Below are positions 1-26,700 of a stretch of DNA of 59,332 bases, piece after piece. Below the pieces are notes generated by a model. The model was not told where the DNA came from, did no database searches, and was given only the letters and a program-made list of their open reading frames with translations. Numbering within the stretch: the first letter of the stretch is position 1; each line of letters begins with the position of its first letter. This DNA comes from Ectocarpus siliculosus (taxonomy: Eukaryota > Sar > Phaeophyceae > Ectocarpales > Ectocarpaceae), in assembly GCA_000310025.1 (NCBI GenBank), contig FN648187.1, positions 68,167 through 127,498 on the forward strand. Reading direction: 5' to 3'. The translations under genes and the position numbers were made by a program.

Positions 1-552
1 CCCCAAAAGGGGGAGAGGAACCCGGGGGAAATTCTTTTTGGGGAACCAGAAATTTTTCCTCCCAATTGGGGGGGGGGGAGGGAAGCGCCCAAGGTTTTTT
101 TTAAGCCCCGGGCCCCCCCCCCGCCGGGGGGTTAGGTTTTTTTGGAAAACCCGGGGTTTTGGTTGGCCTTCCCCCAACCGGAAAAGGTTTAAACCTTTTT
201 CCCCGGCCAAAACAAAAATTTACCCCCCTTTTATTTGTTGTTTGTAAAATAAACCCGCCTTTTCCCCCAAGGGAGGTTTTCTCCCCGGGGTTTTTTTGAT
301 TTTTGTTCCGCCCCAGTGGCCGCGGCACCCCCTTCACCGGGGGGAAAAGGCATCCCGCGGGCGGCAGGGGGGGCAGCAATGTTCCCAGGGGCACCCCCCA
401 AAAAAAAGGAGGGGGTACACCCATAAGGTTTAAGGTGTGGCCCCCCCCCCCTCCCTTTTTGTTGTTTTTCCCCCCCTGCGGGCCGGAGGCACCCCCCCCC
501 CCCCCCCCCCCGGTATCATACGAAATATTGCAAACCACGGGACTCTCCCCAC
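1..552. other. Low-quality contig end
   Basis: This stretch is dominated by runs of G, C, A and T 5 to 20 bases long, with no codon structure on either strand. It begins immediately beyond the splice donor of a clean RNR1 exon. The pattern looks like consensus error at a poorly covered contig end rather than biology. Short open frames here translate to Gly/Pro/Phe/Lys repeats and should be ignored. The remaining RNR1 exons would be expected to the left, outside the window. Confidence 0.7.
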
Positions 553-3106
553 CTCGTCGCTGATGTACCCCGCCTGTCGGCCCGTCTTCGGGTCCACATA
601 GGCGTGCAGCTCCTCCACCGTATCGGCGAAGGACGGGCTCGTCGCGCGCTGCAGGTTTGATACCGAGATCCTCGCCGCCAGCCGGGCGTAGTGCGGGTGC
701 TCCGTGTTCATGTAGGCGCAGGTCTCGGCGGCGAGGGTGTCGAGCTCCCACGTCGTCACGCCGCTGTAGATGCCCTGCACCACCTGCGACGACCACCATA
801 AAAATAAGAGATGACAACAATAGCGTGTGGGATGACCGGGGTTGGGGGTGAGGGCCTGTATTAACGTTTTATGTTTATTTTTGTAACCTAAATTGAATAC
901 CTGAATTGGATTAACCAATTTGCGTTTTTGGTCAAAAAGGGCTTGCGTCGTTTTAACGCATTTTTGCAACACCGAAGTTCAGCAACACCCAAAGGCGGCG
1001 GAATCGCTGCCGCGAGGTGACGTGGTGACCTAACAGGTAGAGCGATAGACCATGTGCACCACACGGGAGCTGTAAAAACATATCAGCACACACACGAAGC
1101 TAAGCATCAGCAGGTGGTGCCAGCGGTCCAAGCCTCATCCTCAGGCTTGCTCTACAAACTGTTGTTTGGACCGTCTGGCTGCACACAACCGGCCGTTGAC
1201 TTTTGACATCGCACATATTGGAAAGCAACTTCCTCAGCAACCCAACCAGCGCGAAAATTTGGCACGCTCACAGATTCATTGCAATGCAGCTATCTCCCAG
1301 CAGCGGGCAGTGAGCGATGCGTGTGGGTGCCGCACGGCCAGTGTGCCACATGCAGTCCCGTCAGGGGTAACGCCAGCACGAGTTCAGCTCATCACGGGGG
1401 GGTGCAAAAGGGGCGCAGTGCAACTCGGGTACTTCGATTCAGCACAAAACAATTTCAATTTGCAATTGTTTTTTGCTGCACCCAATATCGAAGCCCCGCT
1501 TTTCCGGGCAGAGAAAGCCTCATCGTGTTTTTCCCTGTGGACCAATCAGCGTCTTTGGCCCCCGCCCCCCCCCCCCCCGAAATTATGTTTTGCAGGGGCC
1601 CCATTTAAGAACAAAATTAAAACTTTAATGGAGGGCCTGAAGGGACACATCCTCTGGATGGGGTACTAGCTGTAGGTGGCAAGGGCGATAGTGTGGGTGT
1701 CCACCTACCACGCTGCCGTAGTCCCCTTGTACCACCTGCGATAACGACGAGAGTACCGTAGGTTGCACAAGATATCACACCCCCTGGACCGATTTTCGAA
1801 GCTCGACTACTCCACGACGAAGAGGATGCCGAAACTGAAGTACCATACGTTTTCGGAAAGCTTTCGACGAGACGGTCCCAACGCCACCATTTTTCGGCAC
1901 CGTCAATGCTTTTCTTGCCGAGATATCGAGCTTCGAAAATCAGTCCAGGGGGTGTGATGTCTTATGCAACCTACGGTAGGTATGAGAAGAAGAATGACGC
2001 GCTTGGGGCGACTGCTGCGTCCGCGCTGCCAGGGTTCGGGGGTGAGGGGATATCTCAATTGAGGAGAGGAGGGGCGGGGGCGAAGGACGAGCGTGTGGGT
2101 CCCGCTCCCACATGTTGGCGTCGCTACCGACCCGCACGATAGGAAATTGCCTTGTTTGCCTCTTTCCAGAGCTCCTATACTCCGAAGTGACGCCGGGTGA
2201 TGGTGTAACTAGCCTTCTCCTCTTCGGCAACTTCTGTTTTTCGTCTTTGCTGTTGTTGTTGTCGTTGTCGTTGTCGTTGTTGTTGTTCATATTGTTGTCC
2301 TTGTTGCTTTCGCCTCGAAGAAAAAACACCGTTCTGGCTTCTGTGTCCGGACGGTACCGCCTCGTCCTGGCCAACCTCACAGGAATTTCCGAAAGGCCAC
2401 AGGCCAAATCCAAAAATGCCAGTTTTTGACCTGAAGAAGAACATTCCTAACAACTTGGATAACCCGCACTTGCTGCAATAGATATCTCCAAGCAACCGTA
2501 GTGGAGAGAAATCGAAGAGACATGCATGGGAGGAGGAACGTCGGAGGGAAAGGAAGCCTTCTGACCTCTGCTCGACACAGGAATGGCTTCAGCAAGAGAG
2601 ATCCAAAAGCTGCGTGGATAAATTGAAAGGACGAGGAAGACAAATACAGAGGCAGTCAGGCGGATGCTGGTTCAGGTCACCTTCTGCGCCACGAGGACCG
2701 GGTCGATATACCGCTCGTCAAGCCCCCAGCACAGCCGCCGGATGCGGGCCGTAATCTTGTCGAACATGACGGGCTCGCGGCGACCGTCCCGCTTCACCAC
2801 GTGCATCGACGGCGCCCCCCCCCTCTCTCCCTCCTCCAACAAAAACGCCTCCTCTTCCGAAGACGGCGACTGCTGTAACCGCCCGTCTTCGTCCCTCTCC
2901 TCCTTCCCCCCGCCTCGGTCACTGCTGTTTCTATCCTCCTCTGCTGCTATTGCCCCGCCGCCGCCGGCCCCTTGTTCATCCATCCTTCTCGGCGCGACAT
3001 CAACACCGCCACCTCCGCCGCTATTATTAACAACTCCAACGCCGCCGCTGCTGCTAGCGCTGTTCCGTGGCTGCGAGGAGGGGGCGGACTCCTCCTCGGC
3101 CTCCAT
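553..3106 (-). CDS. RNR1: Ribonucleoside-diphosphate reductase large subunit (RNR1), 5' part of gene
   Basis: This is the class I ribonucleotide reductase alpha chain, which reduces NDPs to dNDPs with the R2 subunit in the cytosol. Exon 1 is 2681-3106 and exon 2 is 553-783; both junctions are phase 0 (AAG|gtgacc donor, gtcgcag|GTG acceptor). Residues 101-142 are the ATP-cone start (MHVVKRDGR, then [15 protein letters not shown]). Exon 2 continues with [19 protein letters not shown] and the Tyr-Val-Asp-Pro segment typical of eukaryotic R1. The family usually starts at the Met of MHVV, which is at 2806. The ATG at 3106 adds about 100 acidic, Ser/Gly-rich residues unlike the family, so 2806 is a real alternative start. 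The catalytic barrel and C-terminal Cys pair are not in the window. The 1.9-kb intron contains a terminal-inverted-repeat element and a GTT/GTC microsatellite. Confidence 0.92.
1754..1978. mobile_element. Non-autonomous inverted-repeat element, copy 1 (MITE-like)
   Basis: A 225-bp element in RNR1 intron 1 has terminal inverted repeats of about 53 bp that match at nearly every position. Both ends read TACCGTAGGTTGCA inward, then CCCCTGGACCGATTTTCGAA (one C-to-T change at the right end), then GCTCGA. The outermost TA at each end could be a TA target duplication. There is no coding capacity. Four more related elements are described elsewhere in this window. Confidence 0.88.
2242..2312. repeat. 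GTT/GTC trinucleotide microsatellite
   Basis: An imperfect (GTT)n/(GTC)n tract lies inside RNR1 intron 1. Antisense translation gives Asn/Asp/Gln repeats, which explains the apparent open frames across it. No function is evident. Confidence 0.85.
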
Positions 3107-3171
3107 CCGCGGAGCCCCCTCTCGTAACCGGGAGGATTGGCTTCGGGCCCAACCTCTCGCTGCCGCCGCTG

Positions 3172-3177
3172 ACGCGT
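3172..3177. promoter_or_regulatory. ACGCGT motif upstream of RNR1
   Basis: A palindromic ACGCGT lies 66 bp upstream of the longer RNR1 start codon. This hexamer is the MluI cell-cycle box known from yeast RNR1 and other G1/S promoters. A single hexamer in GC-rich DNA is weak evidence, and no such box is established for this lineage to my knowledge. Treat it as a candidate only. Confidence 0.2.
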
Positions 3178-3273
3178 CCCGTGCTCCGTCGCTCTCTTGT
3201 GGCGGGGCTCCTCGCGGTTGCTGGAAAGAAAATCAAGGGGCATAGAGGGGAGGCTTCGGTAAAGGCTTGTAGG

Positions 3274-6006: not shown

Positions 6007-9000
6007 CTGTCATGGTCTATCATCAACGACGAGCCGCACCATGGAGAAGAAGCCGCCACGGCAGCCATCGACGAAGGACAGGCTTCGAGGGAGACCACGG
6101 AGGCTCGCGAAGCCAGGCGAGAAAAAAACAACATATATTAACTGCAGTTACAAGAGCGCACTTTGTTTTTTTGGACAGCCACCTGTAGCGTCCAAGGCCA
6201 CCTTCCCTCTCGTGCGGTGGCACCTTCTGCCTCTCGCTATCAATCTCGCTCCTCATTTGCCACGTGCTCTGGAAGTCGCGTCTCGCCAAGTTGTACGTAG
6301 AGGACAACACTCATTCTGCGTCCCCCCCTCGTGCATTTTGCCGCACCGCTTGTGCGTCGTATTTATATTTTCTCTCTCTCCCAGGCACAACGCGGTCTAC
6401 GAGCAGGCGTTGGCCTTGCACGGAGAAGGGGCCCCGCACTCGGACGCCTGGGCGAGAGCGAAGAAGCTGTACGACACCGTCATCTCTGACGAGTGAGAGA
6501 AGAGAGACGTGTTATCCCTCGGGGTGGGACTAGAATCATGTCGGTGAAACTTGGCGTCACTTCATCGACGGTCACCCCCTCCCCGCGTCATGACTAACTA
6601 CCGTATACGACACAAGAAAACACACCCCCTGGACCGATTTTCAAAGCTCGATTTATCAACAGCAGAAAGAGCGGGGGTGCCGAAAAACGGCGGGGTTGAA
6701 GCCGTCTGGTCGAGAGCTCTCCGATAACGTATCATTTCGTTTATACATCCTCTTCGTCGAGGAGTAATCGAGCTTTGAAAATCGGTCCAGGGGGTGTGTT
6801 ATCTTGTGTCATATACGGTATAACATAACTCGTGATGGTTGGGAACCTTGGCCGTCCCCCATGCCCCCCACCCCCTGTTTCGACACGAAAACCCTTGTTT
6901 TGCTCACATCCCCCTCTTTCCGTCTTTTGCCGGAGTTACGGACATAGGGTGTAAATTTATGAAAGGAGATGCTCTTTAGGTTTCAGCACTCTCTCAATCA
7001 ATGGGTCTCGCGAGTCCCCAATGCAGCACTGATGTGAAGGCGCTTGGTGAACGGAAAAAATAGCCAATATGACCAAGAGGAGGAATTGTTGCAGACCGAA
7101 CAAACTGACGGTTGTGAAACGGAACCCATAGACACGTAGACCGACGATACATCATTCCCGTGTGTCCCGTTTAAGAGGCGTGTTGGTTCGGGTGACTTGT
7201 TTCGGTTATGTTTCTGGGGGTCTCAGAGAAACGTCTTCAAAGGCCCTCTCCCATTCTGCTCCCTCGTTGCTCCTATGTCAAGAGTTTGATAGGCCCGTGT
7301 CGCCTGGGTCCAAGTGAAACGTGCTGAGGGATGTGCGTGTCAGGGAAGCACCGTGCTTTGGATTTGGAGGGTCACGCGGAAACAACAGACGCCCCCCAAA
7401 GCGCTTTCATTCTTCTTCCTCGCTGTTCCTTATCAAGAATTTTACGTACGCATGTCCCCTGGGTGGTCCAAGCGAAATGTGTTGCGGAACGTGCATGTCA
7501 GGCAAGCAACATGGTCCCGCGGAAGCAACATGAGACGCCTCGCACTTGTTATCAATCACCACCCCCCTCAATGGTCTAACGACTACGGCATGCACACACA
7601 CACCCCTCTTTCCCCCATCGCTTTTCTCGCGCCCCGTGCCGCCAAAACACGTGGTGGAAACAACGCCCTAAAAAAAAACTCTGGGAAAAAATAGACCAAT
7701 GGAGGACAAGAGGTCGGCGTCCAGCTTCGGCACTCCCGTGCGGTTCCTTTGCCTCAAGAACCTCGCCGACATGGTCGAGAGGGAGGGCGACAAGGCGAGG
7801 GCGCTGGAGCTTCAGGTCGCCGCTGCTGACGAGGACGCGACTGACGTGGCGGTGAGACAGACAGACAGACAGATTACCATGGAAGGACACCGCGAGGTAC
7901 CCCCCTCCCCCCCCCCGCACCTTCGGTGTCAGGAATGCTTTTTGCGGATGATTTTGTTGGTATGTCGGACACCCCTGAGGGACTGCAACTACAAATTGAC
8001 GCGGCGAAGAAGTTTTCTGATAAGTGGAGATTGTCGGCCAACGTTAAGAAGAGTGCCGTCATGGTATGCAACGAGGACAGGGAGGAACCAGTAGAACATA
8101 GATGGAAGTGGGGGATCGAGGAGATAGCAGTAGTGGACCAGTACACATACCTCGGGGTAGAGATCGCAAAAGACTGCTCGTGGAATGCACACATGTCTAA
8201 GGTAGCGGAAAAGGCCAAAGCACGAGCAGGGAAGCTGCACTCAATAGTCGCAAACCGGCACCTCGATACACGCATCAAATTGACGGTTTTGAAGAGCTTG
8301 ATCGTACCGCCGATAGAGTACGCCGGAGAAGTATGGGAAGGAAATAAGAAGGTAGTGAAAGAACTCGAGGCGGCGCAGATGAAAGCAGCGAAAATCATCC
8401 TAGGATGCTCCAAGGGCACAAGGAATGCAGCCGTCAGGGCAGAATTGGGAATCCAATCCCTACGGTCGGGAAGAGACGCAAGGAAGCTGACATGGCAGTA
8501 TCGCATGTGCGGGATGGGAGAGGAGAGGTTGCCGAGAATAGTATGGGAGGCGAAGTGGGCAAACAAAAAGAGGGGTAGACAACCTACGGAATGGGTCAAG
8601 GTTGTAGGTGACGTATGGAAGGGGTTAGACATCGACGAAGATGAAACGCTGGAAACGGGGGGTCCACAGGGGTTCAAGGAGAAGATATCTGTTGCTTGTG
8701 CCGAGAGAGAAAAACAGAATCTAAGGAAAGAAACCAAGGATAAGGAGGGTCTAGAAGTGTACGGAATGTTGAAAGAAGGAATAGGGTTCAAGGATTACCT
8801 ACATGAACCAATGGATGCAGGGACAAAGCTTAAGGTCAAATTCAGGACCGGGGACATAGGCCTTCGAGAACGTCGACGAAGACATAGGACTGTAGACGAC
8901 GAAGACGACAAGTTCAAATGTGATTGCGGCTTCGAATGCGAAGACCGTGTTCATGTAGTCGCGGAATGTCCGTGGTACGAAGAGGAGAGGGAAGTGTACA

Positions 9001-11357
9001 TGACCGAGCTGGGAAAAATGCAAGGGAGGTACAGGGAGATGTTTGAGGCATGGAAAAGAGAGGAGAGGACGGTAGCTGTACCGGGGAGTAGGAAGTGTTT
9101 TGAAAAGGCGGGAAGGGATATCGTTCGGATAGACAGACTAGGGAAGACATTTTTGAGCCACCTTTGGCAAAGTAGGAAGGCACGATTGGCCATCGGTGAT
9201 CGGTCCTGTGGGAACAATGCTCCGTCCTCTCGAGGACGCGTGGTCAACGGTCTAACCGCTAAGGCATGCAAAACATAAGAGTACACTCCCCCCCCCCCCA
9301 CCCCCCCGCACCACCCCGGCGTGCTCCGCCCCGGTTTTGTAGGGATGCGAGATCAACGGTCTAACGAATTGCGTGCACGACTATGAGTACACCCCCCCGC
9401 ACCCCCCCGAGACGTTTGAGGCATAGGTTTGAGGTATGGAATAGGTAGCGAGGAGAAGACGGTACATGTACTGGGGAGTAGGAAGTGGGCTGAAAAGGCG
9501 GGAAGTGATATCGATACGATAGACACGCTAGGGAAAACACTGTTGAGCCACCTTTGGCAAAGTAGGAAGGAACGATTGGCCATCGGTGATCGGTCCTGTA
9601 GAAATAGTGCCCCGTCCTCTCGAGGACGCGTGGTCAATGCTCTAACCGCAAAGGCATGCAAAATATGAGTATGCCCACCACCCCCGCCTCACCCCCGCGG
9701 GTCCCCCATCCCAGCTTGAAGACAGCACTAAATCATTGGAGGACTGAGACTACCACAAAGACACCACCGGTCCCCCCTCATCCCTTTCAACAGCATGTTC
9801 CCAACATGAAGAAAACAGTCCACCAATACCGGAGGATGGCGTGCAATCGGTACGGTACTCTTTGTCAAAATGTGGTGCACGATCATTGGTCAACAGAACC
9901 AAATACGCGCCACCCCCGGTCTCTTTGCTGAGTTTTACAGGATTGTGTTGTCAATTCTGCTGGGCCGCTCTTTTCTCCACTAACCGGTTGCTACTGGTGG
10001 CTGTGACGTGTAGGGTTTGTTGGATGTTCTTCCTCCATTCAGTCTGAACGTGTCTCCTCCGGTATTTCTCCCCATCGGCACCCATCCGGCGACAACGATC
10101 ATAACAACAACAACGACGACGACAGCAACAACAACGACGACGACGACAGCAACAATGACGACGACAACAACAATGACGACGACAACAACAACAACGACGG
10201 CGACAGCAACAACACGCTTGATCCACCCACCCGACCCCACCCCCACCTTATCTTCTCGCACAACCGCCCCCGCGATGCCATCAACGACGATGTCAGGTGT
10301 GGATGAAGATGGCGAGACTGTCACGAGCGGCGGGACTGTCAAACCTAGCCCGCCTGGCCCTGGAGCGCCTGCTGGAGGTGAACGGAGACCACGTCTTGGC
10401 CCTGAGGACCCTGAAGGACGTGCTTTCGGAGATAGGCGACGTCGCGGCCTGCCGCGAGGTAGGCGTAATCGAGTACTCACTTGAAGTGCTTTTTTTCCTT
10501 CGGGAGTGAAGATGGAAAACGTTCGCTAGGCTTCGACATGGTGTAGAGTTGGCGACGGTGAACCAACCCGACCGTCCTCTTTCAAGATGCTTTCCTAGGC
10601 CTGGGGAGCTACACAACGAAGGAGTTTTGCTGCTGGTTGACCCTTGTTTCGTGATGTAAGTTATAGGCTGCAGGATGTGCACACACGCAGACCACGCTCA
10701 CGACCGCTGCTGCTGCTGCGGGCGAGACAAGTTCCCGCCAACCACTCGCACAGGCGGTCTTGTTGGTTAGCTTTGCTGTACTACATCGGCCCCAACTGTT
10801 TGGCAATGCCTCGCCGAGGTTTCCGCTTTGTTTTGCCCGTTTGCTCCCGCCTTCCTGCCAAAACAAGTTCCTTCATACCGCCGCATCTCGGAAACTCGCC
10901 TGGTGCCAGCAGGTAACAAAACAGCTCCTCAACCTCGACCCTTACGCCGGCAGCGGCTTGTCTTCCGTCGCCGCCGTTGAGCACCCGTCCCCCGTTCCAT
11001 TCCACGGACCCCCCGCCACGACGGCTAGTACCCGCGGCGAGCAGCAACAGCAGGCAGGCCACCCGCTTCCTTGTCCTCGTTGGGCCTCTCCGTCTCGGTC
11101 CTCGCCCCCGCACTGCGTGGAGCGAACGCTGGACCTTCCGTCGTGGGAGCGGCTCGGCAGGCTGCTGATCGACACCCGGGCTTGCATCGTCCGCGGCCAG
11201 CGTGCCGCTCCCCCGGCTGCGGCGGCCGGGACGTCCGCCGGCGCCGGAGAGCTCGTCCCTGCAAGCGCGAGCAGCAGCAGCGCCGCAGTTGCGGCAGGCC
11301 ACCTCCTGGGTCGAGAAAGCGGCGACAGCGGTAGTGGCGGCGATGTTGACGTGCCCT

Positions 11358-11388
<31 letters not shown>

Positions 11389-11860
11389 TGTCTCAACAGC
11401 GGTGCCGCAACCGCCGCTGACCCTGTCAACCCCGGTGCGGATCGTTCTTCGTCTACGCGACGAGGCTCAAGCTGCGGCTGCTGCTGGCGCTGATGCTCCC
11501 GCCGGCTCCGCTTCCGGCTTGGAAGGCGGAGAGGGTGGCGACAGGAACGGGGTGGGAGCAACAACAGCGGCGGCAGGAAATGATTCCCACGAGCACAGCA
11601 AGCAAGAGCAGCATAATCAACGACGACTTCGACGGCCGTCCGTGGAGAAGGCGATGGAGTGGTACAGCGATGGTTCCAGCTCCTCGGACGATGATGACGA
11701 AGGCGGCGAGGAGGAAGGTGGCAAGGGCAAGGGCAAGGGGAAGCTGAACGGTGGCCGCCAGTCGGAGCTGAGGGCGGAGCGGCGGACGTCGGCCAGGCGG
11801 CAGAAGCAGGTCGAGATCCGCGAGGCGGACGTGGCTGCTGCTAGGGAGGATGACGTCGAG
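6007..11860 (+). CDS. CABIN1/HIR3 exons 1-5: N-terminal TPR block
   Basis: These exons carry the diagnostic similarity to CABIN1. The segment TTEAREARHNAVYEQALAL corresponds to the family N-terminus (TKEAQEAEA, then LYHKAL). FGTPVRFLCLKNLADM followed by ALELQVAAADEDATDVA and VWMKMARLSRAAGLSNLARL matches the TPRs around the family's TDV-LWYRIG-LA-LARRAFE region, and ALRTLKDVLSEIGDVAACRE follows. The last exon (10913-11860) is a long insert rich in Ala, Ser and Glu with (CAG)n-coded poly-Ala at about 11360-11390. It ends in an acidic stretch and a basic RRTSARRQKQ segment, resembling the basic region after the TPRs in CABIN1. Exon 1 ends at a GC rather than GT donor. The intron between 7852 and 10296 hosts a LINE fragment. 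Confidence 0.85.
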
Positions 11861-14800
11861 GTGAGCGAGGAAGGAAGTTCGTTTTGTGGAGTCGGTGCCT
11901 GCTCCTGTTGTTGTTGCTGTTGCTGCTGCTGCTGCTGCTGATGCTGGTCCATCTCGAGAGAACAAGCTCCCGCGAGCGCCCGCGAAACAGAATGAAGAAT
12001 TTCCCTGTCCATCGTCGACATCGCCTGACTTGCCCGTTCCCGATTCCTTACCCCCCCCCGGTGTTTGCCATCGGGGTTGGGTTTTCGTCGCTTGGCAACG
12101 ACGTAGTAAAACAAGCCAATTCATTTCGTGAACTCGGCAACCAGGTTACTTTTTTTTTTACCTCTGTTTTTTTTTTTGCGGTAACCATAATGGTGGTCGA
12201 GTAGATCATGTTGTGCGGGGTCGAGAACCCTCACTCCGCGCAAGGGGGATGATCGCACTACGTTGTGTTGAAATGGTCAAGCATCCTCGAGGCAGTTACA
12301 CCGTGCTTATAACTGTCTCTGGAAGTGAAAGCACCAGAAAATGTATTAAGTCATGCGCAGCTGTCATCCGTACGCAAGGAAGTAAGCACAAGATGCCGAA
12401 CACCCTTAGCAGGATGCAGCGCACCCTTCATGCGACTCGCCGAATACCTCACGGCGTTTCGCGCTTGGTGATGTGAGAGCCTGGTCCGGTGAGAACCCGG
12501 CGTGCTCCGTCCCGGCTTTGTAGGGATGCGAGGTCAATGGTCTAACGACTACGGCATGCACGACTATGAGTACACCCCCCCCTCCCCGAAAACCGCGTAC
12601 AACACAACGAACCAGTTCCGCGTGGCCAGCTTGTTCCTCACGGCGGAGGAGGCCTCGCACGACGACAAAGGGGATGGCGGCCTCGGTGCTGCGGCTGCCG
12701 CGGACGAAGAGGGGGAGCAGCAAGAGACGGAGCGCGCGTGGTGGCCGAACCTCGCGAGAGGTGCTGGCCGAGGCGCTCGAGTCGACGGCTCCGCGGCGGC
12801 AGAAGGGGGGGGGGCATGTGGCGACGCGGGGTGAGAACGATCGATCTTGATTTTGCTCGAATTGTGTTCGCAACAACCTTTCGGTGAAACAGCACATCAC
12901 ATACGCTATTTTTGTTTTGTGTGTTCCAGCCCAAGCTTTTTGATTCAACTGGGCAGCGAGACAGAAGCGTCGTGGCTAGGATGGTTTGAGTGTTGAGGCC
13001 AGTATGGCGCCGTCGTGAACTGCTGGTTGTTTTGAGGTGATGGGCGGGTGAGGAAGGCGAGGGATGCCAGCAAGCAGTCGTTGAGACTAAGATTCTTTTT
13101 TTTTTTGTGTGTGTATGCCTGTCGTTCGGGGACGCCGGGTTCGGCTGGCAGGGGGGGACGCCATGTCGATGTTTTCTGCACAGACGCACCATCTATCTTT
13201 GGGGAGAAACACAGTACACAATAGAAATTGTCGTTGTCGTTGTTGTCTTTACACCGAAACAGAATAGCCGCTAGAGATAAAAAATAGAAAAGTGACGCAT
13301 TTATTTCGGCATAAAGTGCGTGCCTTCTTTCGCTTGGGTCTCGTGGCGAGCTTGGTGAAACGGTTCGCTCACCACACTCCCCCGGAGTGCTCTGCTCTGT
13401 TGTATCGATTGAGCGCTTTCTAATAACAATTAGGTTTTCAACACACTAAGAAGCAGTTAGTGTAGTTCGTAGTCGTTGCGCCGCACGGAAACTTTGTGGC
13501 TGGTTGGGTGTTACTCTCCCCTCTCTCCCCTTCCCCGTGGCATATCTAGTTTGGCACAGCAAATGCAAGGACGATGAACGACCAGCTTCTGGTTCATCAT
13601 TGTGGAACGTAGCCTGTGTCGACGAAACCCGGCGTATCTCTCCGCCCCGGCGTTGTAGGGATGCGAGGTCAATGGTCTAATAACGACTATGGCATTCGTC
13701 TACGTGAGAGAATACCCCCCCTCACCACGTACATGCTCCGTCCTCTCGAGGACGCGTGGTCAATGGTATAACGCGGCATGTGTTTACATCAGAAACACCC
13801 CCACCCACTGTATGTGCAGGGAGCTAGAGGAAGAGGAGGTAGCGCTGGCTGCCAAGATGCTCCCGCGCTGGAAGCAGCGCCACGATGTAGACTGCCGCAG
13901 GTACGACAAGGAGAATATCTTGGAATATGTCGACGTTTCGAGAGACTCCAGAAAAAAAGTGTTCCAATGTACGCCTGGCGAGTTACTGAACGTCGTATTC
14001 TTGTGCAACCTTCATAGGTTTCAAGAAGAGGGGTTCTGTCGTAATTCGAGAGACGCCCGTATTGGGCGTTTCAATGTACGTGTGACGATTTGCTACTGTA
14101 ACACCATATTCTTACGCACGGCCTTCATAGGCTACGAGAAGAAGGATTAGTCGAAGTTTCGAGAGACGCCAGTAAAAGGTGGCGCAATGTACGTTTGACG
14201 ATTTACTCAACACCTCATTCTCATGCAATGTACGTTTGACGATATACTAAACGCCGAAGTCTCATGTACGGCCTTCGCCGCGGAAAGAAACGTCGCTGAT
14301 GGTGGCGGGGTATTGTATTTGCTGCTGCTGTTGCTGCTGCTCCGAAACGCCACCAGATGCGGGGAAGGAGGCATTGTCTTATGCTGCGACTTCTGCCACC
14401 TGGTCTACCACCCGAGATGCCTGGAGGTCACCCCGGGCCTGACCAGCCTCTTCGCCTGCTCCGACTGCAAGGAGGTGATTCAGCGGGACCCCCCCCCCCC
14501 CGCATTTGCTACGGCGGTGTTCGACACAAACGTCGATATACAGTACAGTAGGTGACGCAAGATACCACACCCCCTGAACCGTTTTTCAATGCTCGATTTC
14601 TCCACAACAGAATGAGTGGCAGCGCCGAGAAGGACGGCGAGCGTCGAGAGCTTTCCGAAAACGTATCGCTTCATATATGTATGCATCCTTTTCGTCGTGG
14701 AGTAATCGAGTTCTGAAAATCGGTGCAGGGTGTGTGGTATCTTGTGTCACCTACGGTACACACACGTCCACCGTCTGGGCGGGGGTTAAGATCGCTTTGT

Positions 14801-17721
14801 CGATGGTGTTCTTTGTACTGTCGTTACAGCCAGTGTTTTTAATTTGTCCGCTGACCTGGCTCTCTTCGCCCGTTTCGACTCCAAGGAAGTGGCGAGACTC
14901 TAAGCGGAAAACCCCAACATATTATGGTTTTGTGTTGTTTGCGGCGTTGTTGATCGCGCTGATGCTGGTGTGCCATTTTAGTTGCTTGTGATGCTGGTGT
15001 ACCTTTTCGTTGCTTGTGATGCTGGTATACCTTCTTGTAGCGAAGGGACGCGTGATGCGGTCTATGGCTTGGCGACGGCCTTGTGCAATCCTGGTTAGAC
15101 CGACCCTGGCAAATGGAAAGGGGATCAGTATGCGTTTTATTTGTACCATAATGTGTTCTTTTTCCCCAGCATGAAATATGTTGGAGGCTGTTCGTGCCTG
15201 CTACCGCGACAAAGTCTGTTGCTACAGTGTATTGCTTCATCACATAGAGAGAGGGATACGTGGTCAACGATCAAAGGCGAGCAACACACTGGTACGCCCT
15301 TCCCTCCCAACGACTACGGCAAAGCATGATTATGGGACCCCGACCCCCCCCCCCGCGCGCGCTCATTGGCGCCCCCCCTCCCCCTTGCTGGATGCCCAGG
15401 AAGCCGCCATCCTGGAGTGGGAACTCAAGGGTCGAGATGACGCCGCCAGCGGGGCCGTCGCCGGAGGTCTGCAAGAGTTGCTGCGGGCTGCCGATGGTCG
15501 CGCGGGGAATGCCGGTGTGGTCGACCTCATGCTTAGGTACAGGTCCCTGTTTAGTGCCGGTTGAATAGTGCCGGGTCAAATGTCGGCACGAGTGTCCACA
15601 CTACTGTGCTAAAACCTAGATATCCCTGTCCTGAATAGTGCCGGGGTCCGGTATAGTGCCGGCAAATATTCTGGGCACGTACCGGCACCTCTACTGTACG
15701 TGCATCTTATTTTTTGGCGTCGACCGCGCCAACCGGCTGGCTATTAATAATAATACGTCAGTCTCATTGCGGCTGAAAACACTCTTTCTACTAGCATAGA
15801 CCGCGCTAATAACGGCTGACCAATAGAAATACGTCAGGATCAATGCGCCTGAACTTATTACTACATAGCAAGACTGCGCTAGCTGACCAATGAAACGACG
15901 TCAGTCTCGTTGCGGCTGAAAACACAAAATGTTTTCGGATGACTATGATCTGAGAACCCGTGAATGGAGGCTCAGCTACTCTCCGGGTTAAAGATAGAAA
16001 TTTTGCGTGCGTGTGTGGCCCGCCAGCAGCACCGAGCCTTTTCTTCGTGCGTAAAGTGTAAAACAGCACCTGTAGTCCTGTAGTGGACACCCCCGTGCGA
16101 CGCCACCCTCCAGTCAAAAACAGTACTGCGGGCGGCGGGTAGACGGGGTGATGTTGCGACTCCATATGCATTTGCTCCTAGTTACAACGAGCTCAGAGTG
16201 GGTGTTATGCTCTGTTGGTGATTGTTAGCCAGCCTCTCAGCGCCGTTGTAGTTGATGGAAGAATCATGTGTACGCTCTTGGTTTTGTGCCCAGAAACAAG
16301 CACCTGCTTTGTCTGCAAGCCGGTGTGCTGCATAGGTCGACGCGAGTTGTTGAACCTCTCTTTCACACACATTTTGTTCCCGCATCCAAGCGCCCTTCAT
16401 GCTTCCTCTCGCTCTACGGGGTAGTGCTCTTCACACGAACACCACGAACACCACGAGCTGATCTTTTCCCGTTGCGCGTGACCATGGGGTCGCATTCGAC
16501 TACTTTATTTATTGCAAAACACACAGGTGGTTGAAAGGGGTCACCACAGCCCCGACGGACGACTTGTGTCTCGAGGCCGCCTATTGCGCGGCGGACAACA
16601 GAGCGAGGGGAGGAGGCCGTGGCGGGGGCAACGGGGGGGTTCCGCAGACAACCGCGGGGGTACCCTCGGGGGGGTATCAGCTCGCCGCGGTCGCTCTCGC
16701 CGTGGAGCCGATCGTAAGGGGGTGAGTAGTGAGGTTCACACCCCAATCACAACAACAAATTACTTGTTGATTTTGTTCCGAAACTCGGATGGTTTTTCTG
16801 TGCGCACGGGGCTTGTCCCACGGCACCAGCCATCGTGCTTGAATCAGCAGCCCGCCTACCTGCCTCGTTTCGCCTTCTACCTAGAGTCAACATTCCATCC
16901 ATTTTTTCCCGCCAAACGAAAGGTTGTGAGTCGGTACTATGCGCTTGTCGTCGCTAAGGCTCGGACACCCTGTTTGTTTTTTTTTCACATTTTGGCGAAG
17001 ATACTACACTACTTGAACCTCCCTTCTTCTTTGCACCATTCCCGCCGCTTCTGCAATCAACACGAGACCCCCCCCCCCCCATCCCGCCTTTGCACACATG
17101 CCGCAGGTACCTGCCCACCCGGTTCACCTGGCCGGCGTTGCTAGCCGTCGGCCCCCCACCAGCCACGGTCGACGCTGCCGCCCCTGGAGAAGACGACGGC
17201 CCCGAGCTAGGACTCGCGTGCGAGCTCGCGCTCGCCGAGATGCGCGTGGACAAGGCTCTGTCCCTGATGCGGCAGCGCCAGCAGCAGCAGCGGCCCGCGG
17301 GCGGCAGCAAGAGCAACGCGCACAGCCCTGCGGGTGTGCAGCCATCGGCGCCGGTGGGTGGCGCGGATCCTCCCACGGCGGCGGCGGTGACCGCAGCCGC
17401 TGCTCCGGCGGGAACGGCAGGAGCAGCGGCACCCCCTGCGGCGGCAGCGGCGGCAGCCGTGGTTGTGACTGACGGCGCTGCTACCGAGGTGGGCGGCAAG
17501 AAGAACGAGGGTGCAGGCGGCGGCGGAGGAGGAGGGTGTCTGCGCAGGTCCCCGGAAGACCTCGCCAGGGAAGCCTCGGACATTCTCGCGGACGCCGACA
17601 GGGCCATGCTGCAGCTGGAGCCTTGGTGCTTGGCTATCGACAACAGCAACCTTGGCGACGGTAGGCAGCAACGGAGAGAGCGGCAGAGAGAGAGGCAGAC
17701 AGACCGACGAAAGACAGAAAG

Positions 17722-17776
<55 letters not shown>

Positions 17777-20700
17777 TAAGGCGTTCGGGTTGTGGATGGG
17801 GGGGAAGGCCCCCTTTTACAGTCACCTTCTTCACATGTTGGCAGAGATCGCAACCTTTCTCTTGAACTGAACAGGCGCGCGCAGATGGAAGCCTTTGATT
17901 TTGGCTACAGCAGTACAGCAGTACCGAGAAGATGTTTCTTCTGAGTCATGTAGTCAAGTATCCTCGTCCCTAACCCTCTCTACGCCCGGGATGTATTGAA
18001 TCGCTCTTGACGGCTTAAGACGGCGATGGTGCCGCGGGACACGGAGAGTCGAACACCGCACCCTGGGTGCTGGTGGTGCGGTGGTGGTGGCTGAAAGGCA
18101 TACGGGCGAGGCAGGGCGGCCAAGCGGAAGAAGCCCTAGAGCACTTTCACCTCTGCGAGAGAGCCCTGCGGGGCAGAGGAAGAGAACAGCGGGCGCAGCA
18201 GGGTAGCGGCGCGAGCAGCGGGCAAGAGGAGGAAAAGGGCGACGAGTTCAACGATGAGGACGAGGAAGAAGTCGCGGTGCTGTTGCCGTACTGCTCGGTT
18301 CACCCGAGGATCGATCTGCAGGTGAGAGGGCAGTTCGGCGACCGGCGAAAGAACGCTCTCAACCAACGCATCGTGTGTCGGATCCCGGTGCGTGTAGACG
18401 GATCACCCAAGACGCTTGCTGATTCGATGGCACGGGGTCGCGAGCGCCCGGCGGCTCAACGGCGACGGAGACTGAACGACGAGGTCGCTCTGGGGTATTG
18501 TAGGCCGCATAAGATACCCTGGACCAATTTCTAAATAAGTGATCCGTCCGGAGTGGGCTCATGAGAGAACAGCAATGTCATCAAGGGGTGATGCGAGATG
18601 AGAATAAAGGAGGCAGCAGGATGAACCCGCAACTGGCCTTGGCGTTTCCCGAGCTGGTCAGATCACACAGCTGACGTGTGTCTAACTCGAACAGCCCAGC
18701 GAACCTCGACGAACCAAAAAAGAAGAAAATTACAAATCTGTACACAGTCTTCCTACTCTGCAGCAAACACAGCGAAGGAACCGAAGATGACGGAAGGCGT
18801 TGGAACCGTTGCGCAGAGAGAAAATTGTCCGATAACGCCTCTATTGATTCTGGCACCCCTCTTCGTCGTGGAGTATATTGCGTCCCCAAAACTGAAAAGT
18901 AAAAAATACCCACCCAATCATAGAGGTATTGTATACATACGGGTGAGTTGTTGGCGGAAGGGGTATAGAGGCGAATGTGAGCGAGGTGGACATTTACCAT
19001 CAAGACTACCCTCTGGAAATATTGGATAACATTCGCGCTCGATCCAGGGGGTGTGTTATCTTACGTCACGTCACCGACGGTAACACCACGTTCCTTCTCC
19101 TGCGAAGAAGAGCTCCCGCTGCTGTGGTTGAGACGTAAGCAACGGTGGGACGGAGCTCGCGGGTGTGCGGGGTGCTCACTTTCTGGCTTCGGCTGTTTCC
19201 TTGCGCTCGGAATCGTTTGCTGGGGACGGGCGGCCCTCGGGTTGCCGGACAAAATTACGCTCTCTGTCGCGTCCCACGGTCCTCGTCATTCACCTCTACG
19301 GAATACGTCCGCGTTAGTTGGACCACACGGGGGTCGAAAGATAATGAGCAAGAGTCCGGAACGGGCTTGAATGTGAAGACAGCAACAACAACGGTTTTGC
19401 ATGTGAAGATAAATAGCAACATCCGCCGCCAGTGGTCTCTGTCTCTGTCGGTCTTGCCGTGCCACGAAATCAAACGCTCACCCGTTCCCCACCCCCCAAA
19501 CTTCTCCCCGGAAAGGTTGTTCGGGGGCTTATTACCGACGTAGAACTCTCCGGCACAAGCGAGGCAGCGCGTGAGGCGTTCTCGAGTGCGATCCTTCTTC
19601 TCTCCAAGTGCGCTGCGGTGAGGAACGTAGACACGGCGGCGGGGCAGAGGGCGACCGTAACCGCGGGGACCGGCACCGGGGCGACAGCGGAGGCGGCGAG
19701 ACCGGGAGCGGCAAGCCAGAGCGGCGCTTACGGGAAGTCGGGAGGTACACCTGGCGGCGGCAGCAGCGGCGGCGGCGGCGGCGGCGGCGGCGGTGTGGAC
19801 GCGGCGGTCACCGAGTCCAGAGTTGGCGACGCGCCTGACTCTCAGAGTGTCGTGTCCGCAGAAAGCAACCCCGCCGGGTCGGCGCGTCTCGCACCCGGGG
19901 GCGGACAAGGCAACGGCGAACGGTGTTTTCCGTCGGCTGCGGTGGACGGGACGGCCCAGCCCGGCGGCACTGGTGGCGGTGTCAAAGCTTCATCGCCGCC
20001 GCAGCAAAGAGACCAGGCCCTGAAAGCGCTGGCGTGTGTGATGCGGGGGCTGGAGTCTCGCTTCGTGGCCCGGGCACCGTTGGCTTCGCCGCCGTTCCAA
20101 GGCTCGATCTCTGCGCCGCAATCGGCCGCCGCTGCGGCGGTGGCCGGTGGACCGGGAGCACCAGGCGTCACGGCCGAACCTAAGTCAGCAACGGCAGCGG
20201 GGAACAGGGGGGGCTGGACAGCCCGGGTGCTCTCGTCGCGAGCGGAGGAACTTCTGTCGGATCTGCTGGAGAAGGAGAAGGCGTTCTTGGCGCAGGTCAA
20301 CCGGGACGGCGCTCGCGCGCTCGAGCGGTTGGCGGCGGACCTCGACAAACCCAACGCCGCCGCCGCTGCCGCCACCTCTGCCCCGCCGCCGCCCCCACCG
20401 CCGCCGTTTTTCCTTGCGCGGACCTCTCCCGCTCCTGCTACGCCGGTCATAACGGTGCCCGCCGTGCTTGCCTCAGCGGGCGGAAGAAGTGATATAGCCG
20501 CTCCGCGCCTGACAACAGCGGGCCCGAGCTCACCGCCGGGAACGTCGACCGCGGCAGCGGTGTCCGGCGGTGAACGTGAACTTCTTTTTCGGCGGCGGCG
20601 GCGACACGTTCCCCTACGGCTCTCAGGGCCCGGCCTGGGCGACCAAAACTCGGTGTTCTCGATGATGCTCCGCGGCGCTTCCCTTCTCGACCGCCACGAA

Positions 20701-23700: not shown

Positions 23701-26700
23701 CAGGGCGATGCTGAGCCGGCCAGCGGCGGTGCCGGTGGCAGCCGCGGCAAGGGGCGAAGGCAGCCGTCAAAACGGGCCGAGCGCCTCGGGGAGCGAGTTC
23801 TTCGCGCGCTGTCCCAGTGCCAGGCTTGCCTGTACGACGTCGCCATGGCCCCCTGCGAGGTAAGCGGGAGAGGGCGTTGCCTCTCGAGCTGCTTCTTACC
23901 ATTTCCTCTCTCAAGCATCTTTTCAAAAGGAGCACTGCTGTGGCCTCTACCGGGAGGCGTGAACCGGGGGGCGTGGAAATGTGTTGTTGTCTCCACACGC
24001 ATTGAAAACCGTTCCGGTCTGCACTCAGTACCTTCTACTGTCCATATTGGTCCAACTGACGAACGCCTTCGGTGGTATATGTGGGCGATGTGTGTTTGTG
24101 AATAATGGGGCTCTTCCGCGCGGGTCACGTGCGTTCGACTCCCAATGCACAAGTTGGAAGGAGGTGACGCCCGGACACACAGATGGCTATCGCCCGTACA
24201 CCTCCGCTTGTCTCTTCTTCTCCGTTATGCTCGCCTTGAACTTTTGTTTTTTTTTTGCTCCAACATCTTCGAACTGCCGTCATTCCTTTTTTTGTCTGTG
24301 TCAACAACCCCAAATGTTCATGGTGGTAGCTATGCAAGCCGTTCCTTTTTTTTGTCTCTATCAGCCCCAAACGTTCATCGTAACTATAAGAGTCCCCACA
24401 CCACAGCACGCCCTCGTCCCCTGCGACTTGCGATCCGTGGGAACGCGCGCGCGCAGGACCACCGCTGCTTGACCCCGCCGAGCCCCCCCTCCACGGCCTT
24501 GGAGGCCCGCGCGCTGTACGTCTGCTGGGAGAGCCGCCTGCCCGACCTCCGCCGCTCCCACGCGCTCCGCCTTCTGGAGGCCGTCGCGGCCCACGCCGCG
24601 TTTTCGTCCCCGCCTAACACACGCTTCTCCAAGGCGGTGGAAACCCACGTGTTTTTGGCGTGGTCGCCGCTGGCGACGGCCAGGGCAGACATGAGAGCAG
24701 TCGAGAAAGATGGGCAGGGCGTTCAGGGCAGCAGCTCGAGGAGCAGCGGCGGGCCAGGGTCGCGCGTTTTGTCCTTCTTGCACGGGACAGGTTCAGCTCT
24801 ACCAGACGGGGTCTTCGACAACATGCCTGTTGCCAGCGGCGGAGGAAATGGTTGCTCGGCCCCGGCGGCGACCGGGACTACCATTGCGGCGGCGGCGGCT
24901 CCTAAAGACGGGACACGGGATGTGAACAGCGATAGAAGCGGTGCGTCGGCGGTGTCAGCAGGGACGGAGAGGGAAAAACGAGACACGCACGAGGAGCGAC
25001 GAGGACCGGGCACGGAGCGGGGGGACCCGCAGAGCGCGGGGAGGTGGGGTGGGGCCCCCGTGGACCCCGAGATGGAGGCTTTCCGGCGGGTGTACCTGGG
25101 TTTCTACAAGAACCTGGTGGAGGCCAAAGGAGTGCCTTCCGGGTTCAGATCGTGCGCGACGAAGTCGATCGGCGACGGTACGTAGGTCCTGCTTCTGTCA
25201 GCAGCTGCTGTTGTTATCGTGCGCAGTCAAGTCGACCCCCACGCGTAAGCTGTTGAGTTGAGTTTCAGTACACAGTGTGAGTATCGACATGAGACTACAA
25301 ACACTGATGTGAAGACACTGGAGGTTTGGACTCCTCGCTCGTGAAGTAACCGCTCTTCTTGCCTGCCTCCGTTATCGACTGGGCTTGCATCTTGGGGGAA
25401 AAAGAGTTGGAGTTGTCCCATACGACCATGGCCCGGTCCCGAACCGACAATATCCTGTCCACAGCTCCGACGCGATGGAGAGCCACACTCCCACGCCACC
25501 GCTTTTCGCGATCTTTTCTTTTTCGTGCACTCCTCCCCCTCCCCGTGCGGCGCTGTAGCGTCCGATACGGAGGCTGCGCTCATGCAGGGGATCCGGTGGC
25601 GCGTTCTCGATCTTAGCTTCTGTCCGGACCGGATGTCATCTTGGAAAGGGTTGGCGCAGGTGGGTGTTGCACCTTTTGCTTGGGTTCTGGAATTCAGTGA
25701 ACGGTGCGGTGCGGTGCGGTGCGGTGCGGTGCGGTGCGGTGCGGTGCGGTGCGGTGCGGTGCGGTGCGGTGCGGTGCGGTACAGTTCAGTGCGGTGCGGC
25801 CGCAGTGGACGGTTTTGGGGGCCTGTGTGTTGCTCGATGGTGTGTGTGGTCAGGAGAGACTTTTCCTGTTGGGTGAGGCGACTCCCTGCAAAGTGGCACG
25901 TGATCGAAAGCACATTTGAAAGCATTATGAGCGTTTGGTTTTTGTTTGTGTGGGAACTTTCCCACGGACAACCAAGCCGACATTCGAGAGGCCTTGGCGT
26001 GGGCCATCTACTAACCTTTGTTCGAGAGGGTACAACTGGGTTTACGTCCCCGCCCTCCCCGCCCCCGTCCCCTTCCCGGTTCCCCCACCCCCTCCCGCCC
26101 GCTGAACCCCCGTCAGTGCGCCTGTCGCCTGGCCGCCCTCTACCTAGACGCCTTTTCTCCGTCGTGCCATCGGTTGGGGATGCCCCTCATGGCAACAGCG
26201 GCGCCAGCTCGGAAGCCGATGGCCGACTCTCGAGCAGCAGGCCGCGGGAACCCTCCTCGATCTCCATCCGCCCCTGGCACGAAGGCCGGGGGGGAGGGGG
26301 CCGAGGCGATAGACTCGAGTGCGGCGGAATCTCCTGGTTCGTGTCCCGCCGCCGTTGCGCCGGGAGACACGCCGTCGCCCAACGCAGACGCCGTGATGTC
26401 GGATGTTGTTGATGCCGTTGATGGCGGCAGCAGTGGCGTTCCCGCTGGCTCACCCGCTCCTGGAAGGAAGGAAAGCGGCGGGGGGACTGGGAACGGTAGC
26501 GGTGTCGGTGGGGGCAGCCCCAGCAACGTGACGCCACCGGCCCCCGCCAACGATGCGACCATGGCTATCGAAGTAGCCGGAACCCGCAATCCCGAACAGG
26601 CAGGGCTGGGCGGCGACGACATTCCGAACTTGGTGATAGACATCGGCGACGGCGACACCCCAGCCGTAGCGGATGCCGCTGCCCCGATCGCGGCCGGCGG

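What the first reader, a model, noticed from the sequence alone, without database searches (positions are those of the whole stretch)
12616..15536. PHD finger embedded in a CABIN1/HIR3 histone-chaperone protein
Two small exons (13820-13900 and 14357-14474) join in phase into a complete Cys4-His-Cys3 PHD finger. The exons before and after continue in phase into CABIN1/HIR3-like sequence. A histone-tail reader built into the scaffold of the HIRA deposition complex would link reading of H3 marks to histone deposition in one chain. Known CABIN1/HIR3 proteins, as far as I know, have no PHD finger.
Basis: partly seen in the sequence, partly recalled or inferred. Interest (0 to 1): 0.75.

Follow-up and report, generated by a model that had tools for sequence, protein, structure and literature searches.

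The report
PHD finger inside CABIN1-like histone chaperone
One gene in this genome appears to join a scaffold protein of a histone-depositing machine (CABIN1/HIR3) to a small zinc finger of the kind that reads histone tails, an unusual combination that would let one protein both sense and help place histones.

Summary
Exons 13820-13900 and 14357-14474 join in phase into a complete C4HC3 PHD finger; the junction itself rebuilds the first C-x2-C. Eleven exons (6385-18321) with GT..AG introns give 992 codons and no stop.

The gene is CABIN1-like: 4 of 389 plus-strand segments score 58 or more against human CABIN1, in CABIN1 order. 200 shuffles gave at most 1, and the minus strand 0 of 425. An N-terminal block matches at 31% over 111 residues (E 4e-10). 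The match next to the PHD (NAGVVDLMLR) is weak alone. One such gene, HIRA and ASF1 were found in the genome.

Added here: the PHD lies in a three-exon cassette (12616-14474, 414 nt, phase 0/0). Skipping all three exons keeps the frame; skipping only the two PHD exons does not.

Weak points: no transcripts, no relatives found, Pfam PHD at 20 bits against a cut-off of 24, histone binding untested. That other CABIN1 proteins lack PHD could not be checked widely.

The parts
6385..6492 (+). CABIN1-like exon (N-terminal TPR region); phase joins to the next exon
   Evidence: GT-AG, in phase; likeness to human CABIN1 here is by eye only
7695..7851 (+). CABIN1-like exon, TPR region (CLKNLADMVEREGDKARALELQ...DATDVA)
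   Evidence: Local alignment to recalled human CABIN1, score 65, which runs on past the exon end to 7993; joined to the next exon 31% over 111 aa, E 4e-10
10297..10458 (+). CABIN1-like exon, TPR region (VWMKMARLSRAAGLSNLARLALERLLEVNGDH...)
   Evidence: Score 58 to recalled CABIN1; part of the 111-residue match; weak Pfam TPR hits, best TPR_14 E 0.024, under cut-off
10913..11860 (+). long exon, largely low-complexity, ends phase 0
   Evidence: Open frame; likeness of WERLGRLLIDTR and RRTSARRQK to human motifs is by eye
12616..12830 (+). cassette exon 1, acidic low-complexity linker; its 3n+2 length is needed to bring the PHD into frame
   Evidence: GT-AG; codon score highest in the model frame
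13820..13900 (+). cassette exon 2: ...ELEEEEVALAAKMLPRWKQRHDVDCR; carries the first PHD cysteine
   Evidence: In phase; joins to rebuild C-x2-C
14357..14474 (+). cassette exon 3: PHD finger from the second to the last cysteine
   Evidence: Pfam PHD 20 bits, PDB PHD hits, only pattern hit in the window; codon score negative
15400..15536 (+). exon after the PHD (NAGVVDLMLR)
   Evidence: NGGILELMMRY/NAGVVDLMLRY, score 41, a level that controls also reach; blastp 46.7% over 15 residues, E 0.057
16527..16721 (+). exon continuing WLKGVTTAP...
   Evidence: In phase
17107..17660 (+). exon, partly low-complexity
   Evidence: In phase
18020..18321 (+). CABIN1-like exon (VVRWWWLKGIRARQGGQAEEALEHFHLCERALR)
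   Evidence: Score 63 to recalled CABIN1, blastp E 6e-4
25585..25656 (+). later CABIN1-like segment (GIRWRVLDLSFCPDRMSSWKGLA), same order as in human CABIN1; exon ends not determined
   Evidence: Score 59; blastp E 0.002
12494..12587 (+). copy of a young short repeat just upstream of the 12616 acceptor; shares sequence with the end of the LINE-like fragment
   Evidence: 40 near-full-length matches in G000 at 97-100% identity, this copy included; 107 candidates, 40 scored; related copies in the window

Best explanation
This is the only CABIN1/HIR3-like gene detected in the genome, and its protein carries a PHD finger as a three-exon cassette. The cassette lies between the N-terminal TPR part and the later CABIN1-like segments. 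SHOWN in sequence: open in-phase exon chain, complete C4HC3 finger, CABIN1-like segments in order before and after it, symmetric phase 0/0 cassette, HIRA and ASF1 genes in the same genome. INFERRED: the protein joins a HIRA complex as its TPR scaffold, and the finger docks that complex on an H3 tail. The finger lacks the Trp two residues before the His that K4me3 readers usually have (position recalled), and it has acidic residues before the first Cys and in CCD-x-C. So I expect it to prefer an unmodified H3 tail, which suits newly made H3-H4 or freshly assembled nucleosomes. It would raise retention of the chaperone where H3 K4 is unmethylated.
For: Exon joins and frames. PHD family and nearest solved relatives ZMYND8, ATRX, PHF12, CHD4, NSD3, ZMYND11, AIRE. 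Only pattern hit in the window, 0 of 60 shuffles. Four colinear CABIN1 segments at score 58 or more (4 of 389) against at most 1 in 200 shuffles and 0 of 425 on the minus strand. N-terminal block E 4e-10. Whole-core global alignment to recalled CABIN1 137, against 100 shuffles of each side with maxima 88 and 98. One copy detected: the 9 matches of a 347-residue query all lie in this gene. HIRA at C2:652682 E 2.2e-16; ASF1 in three pieces at C26. [quoted passage not shown] RACK7/ZMYND8 PHD can also bind unmodified H3 (PMC10124903, passages).
Against: No transcript evidence. Human CABIN1 was recalled, not retrieved. The best chain of alignments of score 40 or more (319) was reached by 1 of 100 shuffles, leaves out 10297 and takes in likely noise; 30 alignments reach 40 here, against 23 on the minus strand and 26 with reversed CABIN1. 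With a threshold of 28 the chain does not beat controls (764; minus strand 806, reversed 749, shuffles mean 715). The global alignment sets the segment after the PHD against another part of CABIN1 than I propose. phmmer of the CABIN1-like blocks against PDB gives only TPR or chance hits. Pfam gives only sub-cut-off hits: FAT E 0.0012, TPR_14 E 0.024 and PHD. Codon score of the main PHD exon is negative. The residue two before the first Cys, which I recall as an acidic K4 contact in AIRE and BHC80, is Val here. No HUN/ubinuclein domain found (uninformative).
Confidence: 0.6

Rival explanations
1. Two genes abut here: an N-terminal CABIN1 piece ending near 11.9 kb and a second gene that starts inside the PHD exons (for instance at the ATG of MLPRWKQRHDVDC) and runs on downstream.
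For: Reading on past the donor at 11861 gives a stop soon after (frame ends at 11941). An in-frame Met (residue 543) lies 12 residues before the first zinc ligand.
Against: The downstream part continues CABIN1 in order (scores 63 and 59), so the second gene would be the rest of CABIN1. Exon phases match across the supposed boundary.
Confidence: 0.1
2. The PHD cassette is real but mostly skipped: the main protein is an ordinary CABIN1 and the PHD form is rare or a splicing by-product of repeat-rich introns.
For: The three-exon cassette is 414 nt with phase 0/0, and the model without it has 0 stops. Introns around it carry a young repeat at 12494-12587 and related pieces at 13626-13772 and a MITE-like inverted repeat at 14536-14775.
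Against: An intact C4HC3 finger with correct spacing argues for selection. Skipping only the two PHD exons gives stops (9 in the read-out frame).
Confidence: 0.2
3. The gene is another large TPR or helical-repeat protein, not CABIN1.
For: Identity is low (31%); Pfam gives no family over its cut-off for the parts scanned, and the best sub-cut-off hits are FAT and TPR; CABIN1 was compared from memory. The N-terminal block scores about as well against its best PDB hit, a designed consensus TPR (28.9 bits over repeated stretches), as against recalled CABIN1 (30.3 bits; slightly different query pieces).
Against: Later segments outside the N-terminal TPR block also match in CABIN1 order (18064 score 63, 25585 score 59).
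Confidence: 0.1

Closest known systems
CABIN1 / yeast Hir3 / fission yeast Hip3 (TPR subunit of the HIRA complex)
   Same: N-terminal TPR block; later segments [23 protein letters not shown] and ICPNRFDSWAGMA have counterparts in the same order, and NGGILELMMRYLK weakly (human sequence recalled; Hir3 and Hip3 themselves not compared).
   Different: A PHD finger cassette between these parts; long Ala/Gly/Ser low-complexity runs.
ZMYND8/RACK7 PHD (PDB 7cwh, 5b73)
   Same: Best PDB match, E 7e-6, CC-x-x-C core.
   Different: RACK7 has a PHD-BD-PWWP cassette (PMC10124903, passage); here a TPR scaffold.
ATRX ADD domain (PDB 3ql9)
   Same: CRWCAEGGNLICCDFCH against CRRCGEGGIVLCCDFCH; ATRX also belongs to an H3.3 deposition system, with DAXX (recalled).
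   Different: ATRX has Cys where this finger has His (alignment) and an extra GATA-like finger (PMC9709290, passage); here a plain PHD.
PHD finger at G000 C24:1364687-1364809
   Same: The other match of the PHD exon in the same genome, 45% over 42 residues.
   Different: Lies on another contig with a Pfam PHD over its cut-off; the CABIN1-like query had no match there, but its gene was not modelled.

Membership tests
PHD finger | Cys4-His-Cys3 ligands with canonical spacing | tested here: met
   C-x2-C-x8-C-x2-C-x4-H-x2-C-x12-C-x2-C in the spliced reading
PHD finger | Pfam PHD model match over its gathering score | tested here: inconclusive
   Full-length model match, E 7.2e-4, but 20 bits against 24, 17.9 bits in a longer piece; PDB PHD chains to E 7e-6
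PHD finger | PHD fold | tested here: inconclusive
   Single-exon AlphaFold2 model, mean pLDDT 46.4, uninformative; the first ligand is on another exon; the spliced protein was not folded
PHD finger | Zinc and histone-tail binding | not testable with these tools
   -
H3K4me3-reading PHD | Aromatic cage with its Trp before the His ligand | tested here: not met
   Sequence reads CHLVYH, no Trp; position of the Trp recalled, an invariable cage Trp is stated in PMC10124903 (passage)
CABIN1/HIR3 | N-terminal TPR block like human CABIN1 | tested here: met
   31% over 111 residues, E 4e-10 for the single comparison, against a recalled sequence
CABIN1/HIR3 | Later segments in the same order | tested here: met
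   Scores 63 and 59 in order, 41 weakly; 4 of 389 segments at 58 or more against at most 1 in 200 shuffles; recalled reference
CABIN1/HIR3 | Sequence match to a database CABIN1/HIR3 record | not testable with these tools
   No eukaryote protein database; PDB search with the recalled TPR block gave 52 sequences, none named CABIN1
CABIN1/HIR3 | Binds HIRA and acts in H3.3 deposition | not testable with these tools
   HIRA and ASF1 genes present in G000; ubinuclein HUN domain not found, search uninformative

The most novel reading that the evidence does not exclude
In this lineage the HIRA complex scaffold has a built-in, switchable histone reader: a phase-symmetric PHD cassette, gained as a block in repeat-rich introns, that reads the unmodified H3 tail and can be spliced out, so that one gene makes chaperone scaffolds with and without chromatin-reading ability.
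Probability: 0.25. Interest if true: 0.75.

Novelty: new variant of a known kind. Interest (0 to 1): 0.5.

Why it matters
How the HIRA complex is sent to particular chromatin is, as I recall, usually explained by partner proteins. A reader inside the scaffold would tie sensing of H3 state to H3 deposition in one chain. It would be directly testable by H3 peptide binding, by removing the finger, and by comparing isoforms. It would also show that histone chaperone scaffolds, not only remodellers and modifying enzymes, acquire reader modules.

Tried and rejected
Relatives: the search for related loci in viral contigs (21 stretches matched a pattern, 0 confirmed) and genome contigs (50 matched, 0 confirmed) gave nothing, as expected for a eukaryote gene; metagenome scans were capped at 0. 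PDB searches with the CABIN1-like blocks gave no CABIN1 or Hir3 chain, and a recalled human TPR block gave other TPR chains. Chaining low-score alignments was uninformative (real 764, minus strand 806, reversed 749, 60 shuffles mean 715, max 856), so I rest on the strongest segments; the threshold of 58 was set. AlphaFold2 of the single PHD exon failed (pLDDT 46.4); no fold search followed. I considered that the poly-C repeat tails upstream of the 12616 and 13820 acceptors carried the exons in (3' transduction), but made no test; it stays a note. ARAGORN found no tRNA and Rfam no family at gathering score in the window.
Full report
OBSERVATION. I rebuilt the gene from the window. Eleven exons from 6385 to 18321, with ten GT..AG introns, join into 992 codons with no stop in the model frame and 19 and 24 stops in the other two. 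The start and the end of the gene were not modelled. Exon 13820-13900 ends in ...GAC TGC CGC AG and exon 14357 begins A TGC GGG, so the junction makes D-C-R-R-C-G, the first C-x2-C of a PHD finger. The rest, GEGGIVLCCDFCHLVYHPRCLEVTPGLTSLFACSDC, supplies the other ligands. In six frames of the window the pattern from the second to the last cysteine occurs once, at 14358, and in 0 of 60 shuffles.

WHAT THE FINGER IS. Pfam PHD matches its whole length at E 7.2e-4 but at 20 bits, under the 24-bit cut-off; in a longer 310-residue piece 17.9 bits, E 0.0033. Against PDB, 44 distinct sequences match at E up to 0.1; the best are ZMYND8/RACK7 (7e-6), ATRX ADD (1.5e-5), PHF12, CHD4, NSD3, ZMYND11 and AIRE. 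The genome search listed 30 Pfam PHD matches at E up to 1e-3; this one is not among them, presumably because it is split over two exons. The PHD exon's only other match in the genome is at C24 (45% over 42 residues).

WHAT THE GENE IS. In the parts scanned, no Pfam family reaches its cut-off: the best for the N-terminal block are FAT (E 0.0012, 18.6 bits against 24.2) and TPR_14 (E 0.024); other frames gave weaker or no hits. In the region 5000-38000, 4 of 389 plus-strand segments score 58 or more, at 7702, 10297, 18064 and 25585, matching CABIN1 residues from about 75, 125, 609 and 1072 on, in order. The 7702 alignment runs on past its exon into the intron. None of 425 minus-strand segments reaches 58, and 200 shuffles of the human sequence gave 0 (176 times) or 1 (24 times); the threshold was set. 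The joined N-terminal part matches over 111 residues at 31%, E 4e-10. The stretch after the PHD reads NAGVVDLMLRWLK against NGGILELMMRYLK; its core scores 41, a level that controls also reach (30 alignments at 40 or more here, 23 on the minus strand, 26 with reversed CABIN1), so it counts only by its position. Weaker methods did not separate signal from noise: chaining alignments of 28 or more failed, and with 40 one of 100 shuffles reached the real chain. A global alignment of the core scored 137 against shuffle maxima of 88 and 98, but set the segment after the PHD against another part of CABIN1. Searched as a 347-residue query without the PHD core, the 9 matches in the genome all lie in this gene, so no second copy was seen. 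The genome also holds HIRA and ASF1; a ubinuclein HUN domain was not found, and that search is uninformative.

NEW DETAIL. The three exons 12616-12830, 13820-13900 and 14357-14474 add up to 414 nt and are bounded by phase-0 introns. The model without all three has 0 stops; without the two PHD exons 9, without 14357-14474 alone 9, without 12616-12830 alone 5, and without 13820-13900 alone 0 but with a broken finger. So the PHD lies in a symmetric cassette that can be gained or skipped as a whole. The introns around it hold mobile-element pieces. A 94-base repeat at 12494-12587 has 40 near-full-length matches at 97-100% identity, itself included, plus one 27-base piece; 40 of 107 candidates were scored. 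Related pieces lie at 7568, 9234, 9315, 9624, 13626 and 13733, the 9234 one at the end of a LINE-like reverse transcriptase frame (RVT_1 E 1.1e-4, 22.5 bits against 29.6). A MITE-like inverted repeat lies at 14536-14775. Whether these brought the cassette in is unknown.

CODING SIGNAL. Codon log-odds, trained on 1642 codons of five large open frames of this region, favour the model frame for 12616-12830 (40.9), 13820-13900 (4.3) and 15400-15536 (20.7). They do not for 14357-14474 (-3.5, with -7.2 and -3.3 in the other frames and 12.2 in one minus-strand frame). GC is 0.63-0.73 in the cassette exons against 0.47-0.54 in the introns around it.

MECHANISM. Inferred: the TPR scaffold binds HIRA (as reported for CABIN1, in the introduction of PMC4163656, passages) and the finger docks the complex on an H3 tail. 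PHD fingers either cage K4me3 with aromatic residues or bind unmodified K4 with negatively charged ones, and RACK7 PHD can also bind unmodified H3 (PMC10124903, passages). Here the cage Trp is absent, and acidic residues lie at -1 and -3 of the first Cys and in CCD. The residue at -2, which I recall as a K4 contact in AIRE and BHC80, is Val. So preference for unmodified H3 is likely but not certain, and a non-histone ligand is possible.

PAPERS. Searches: CABIN1, PHD finger and HIRA (3 papers); Hir3, CABIN1, cryo-EM (0); CABIN1, stramenopile (0); CABIN1, HIRA, Arabidopsis, domain architecture, three of four terms (579 papers, 15 listed); chromatin architecture terms (22, 15 listed); Ectocarpus, histone chaperone (6); Hir3, PHD finger (2); CABIN1, algae (3); calcineurin-binding protein, PHD, brown alga (0). 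No title or abstract start listed speaks of a PHD in CABIN1/HIR3. I read passages of PMC4163656, PMC10080907, PMC10124903 (found), PMC4357127, PMC9709290, PMC2636879 and PMC5809374; in the passages shown the two terms were not joined. The other listed papers were not opened, and this library is only the open part of the literature.

VERDICT. A real and unusual domain combination at sequence level, in a CABIN1-like gene. Splicing, binding and the absence of PHD in other CABIN1 proteins remain untested.

Noticed in passing
window 430-3232, minus strand: ATP-cone pieces (Pfam E 6.3e-7 over cut-off, and 0.0044 under it) of what looks by eye like a ribonucleotide reductase large subunit gene, divergent from the CABIN1-like gene.
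   Followed up: partly
window 7845-9278, plus strand: Long open frame of a LINE-like reverse transcriptase fragment (RVT_1 E 1.1e-4, under its cut-off), overlapping the intron 7852-10296 of the CABIN1-like gene.
   Followed up: partly
window 12494-12587; also 7568, 9234, 9315, 9624, 13626, 13733: Young short repeat ending C-rich, sharing sequence with the end of the LINE-like frame; copies lie close upstream of the 12616 and 13820 acceptors.
   Followed up: partly
window 14536-14775; relatives at 1752-1978 and 6599-6820: MITE-like element with inverted repeat ends, in the intron after the PHD exon.
   Followed up: partly
window 50134-50847, plus strand: Kinesin motor domain exon (Pfam E 3.6e-53).
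   Followed up: no
window 42501-43295: Run of unread bases (X in the translation), either a gap or a withheld stretch.
   Followed up: no
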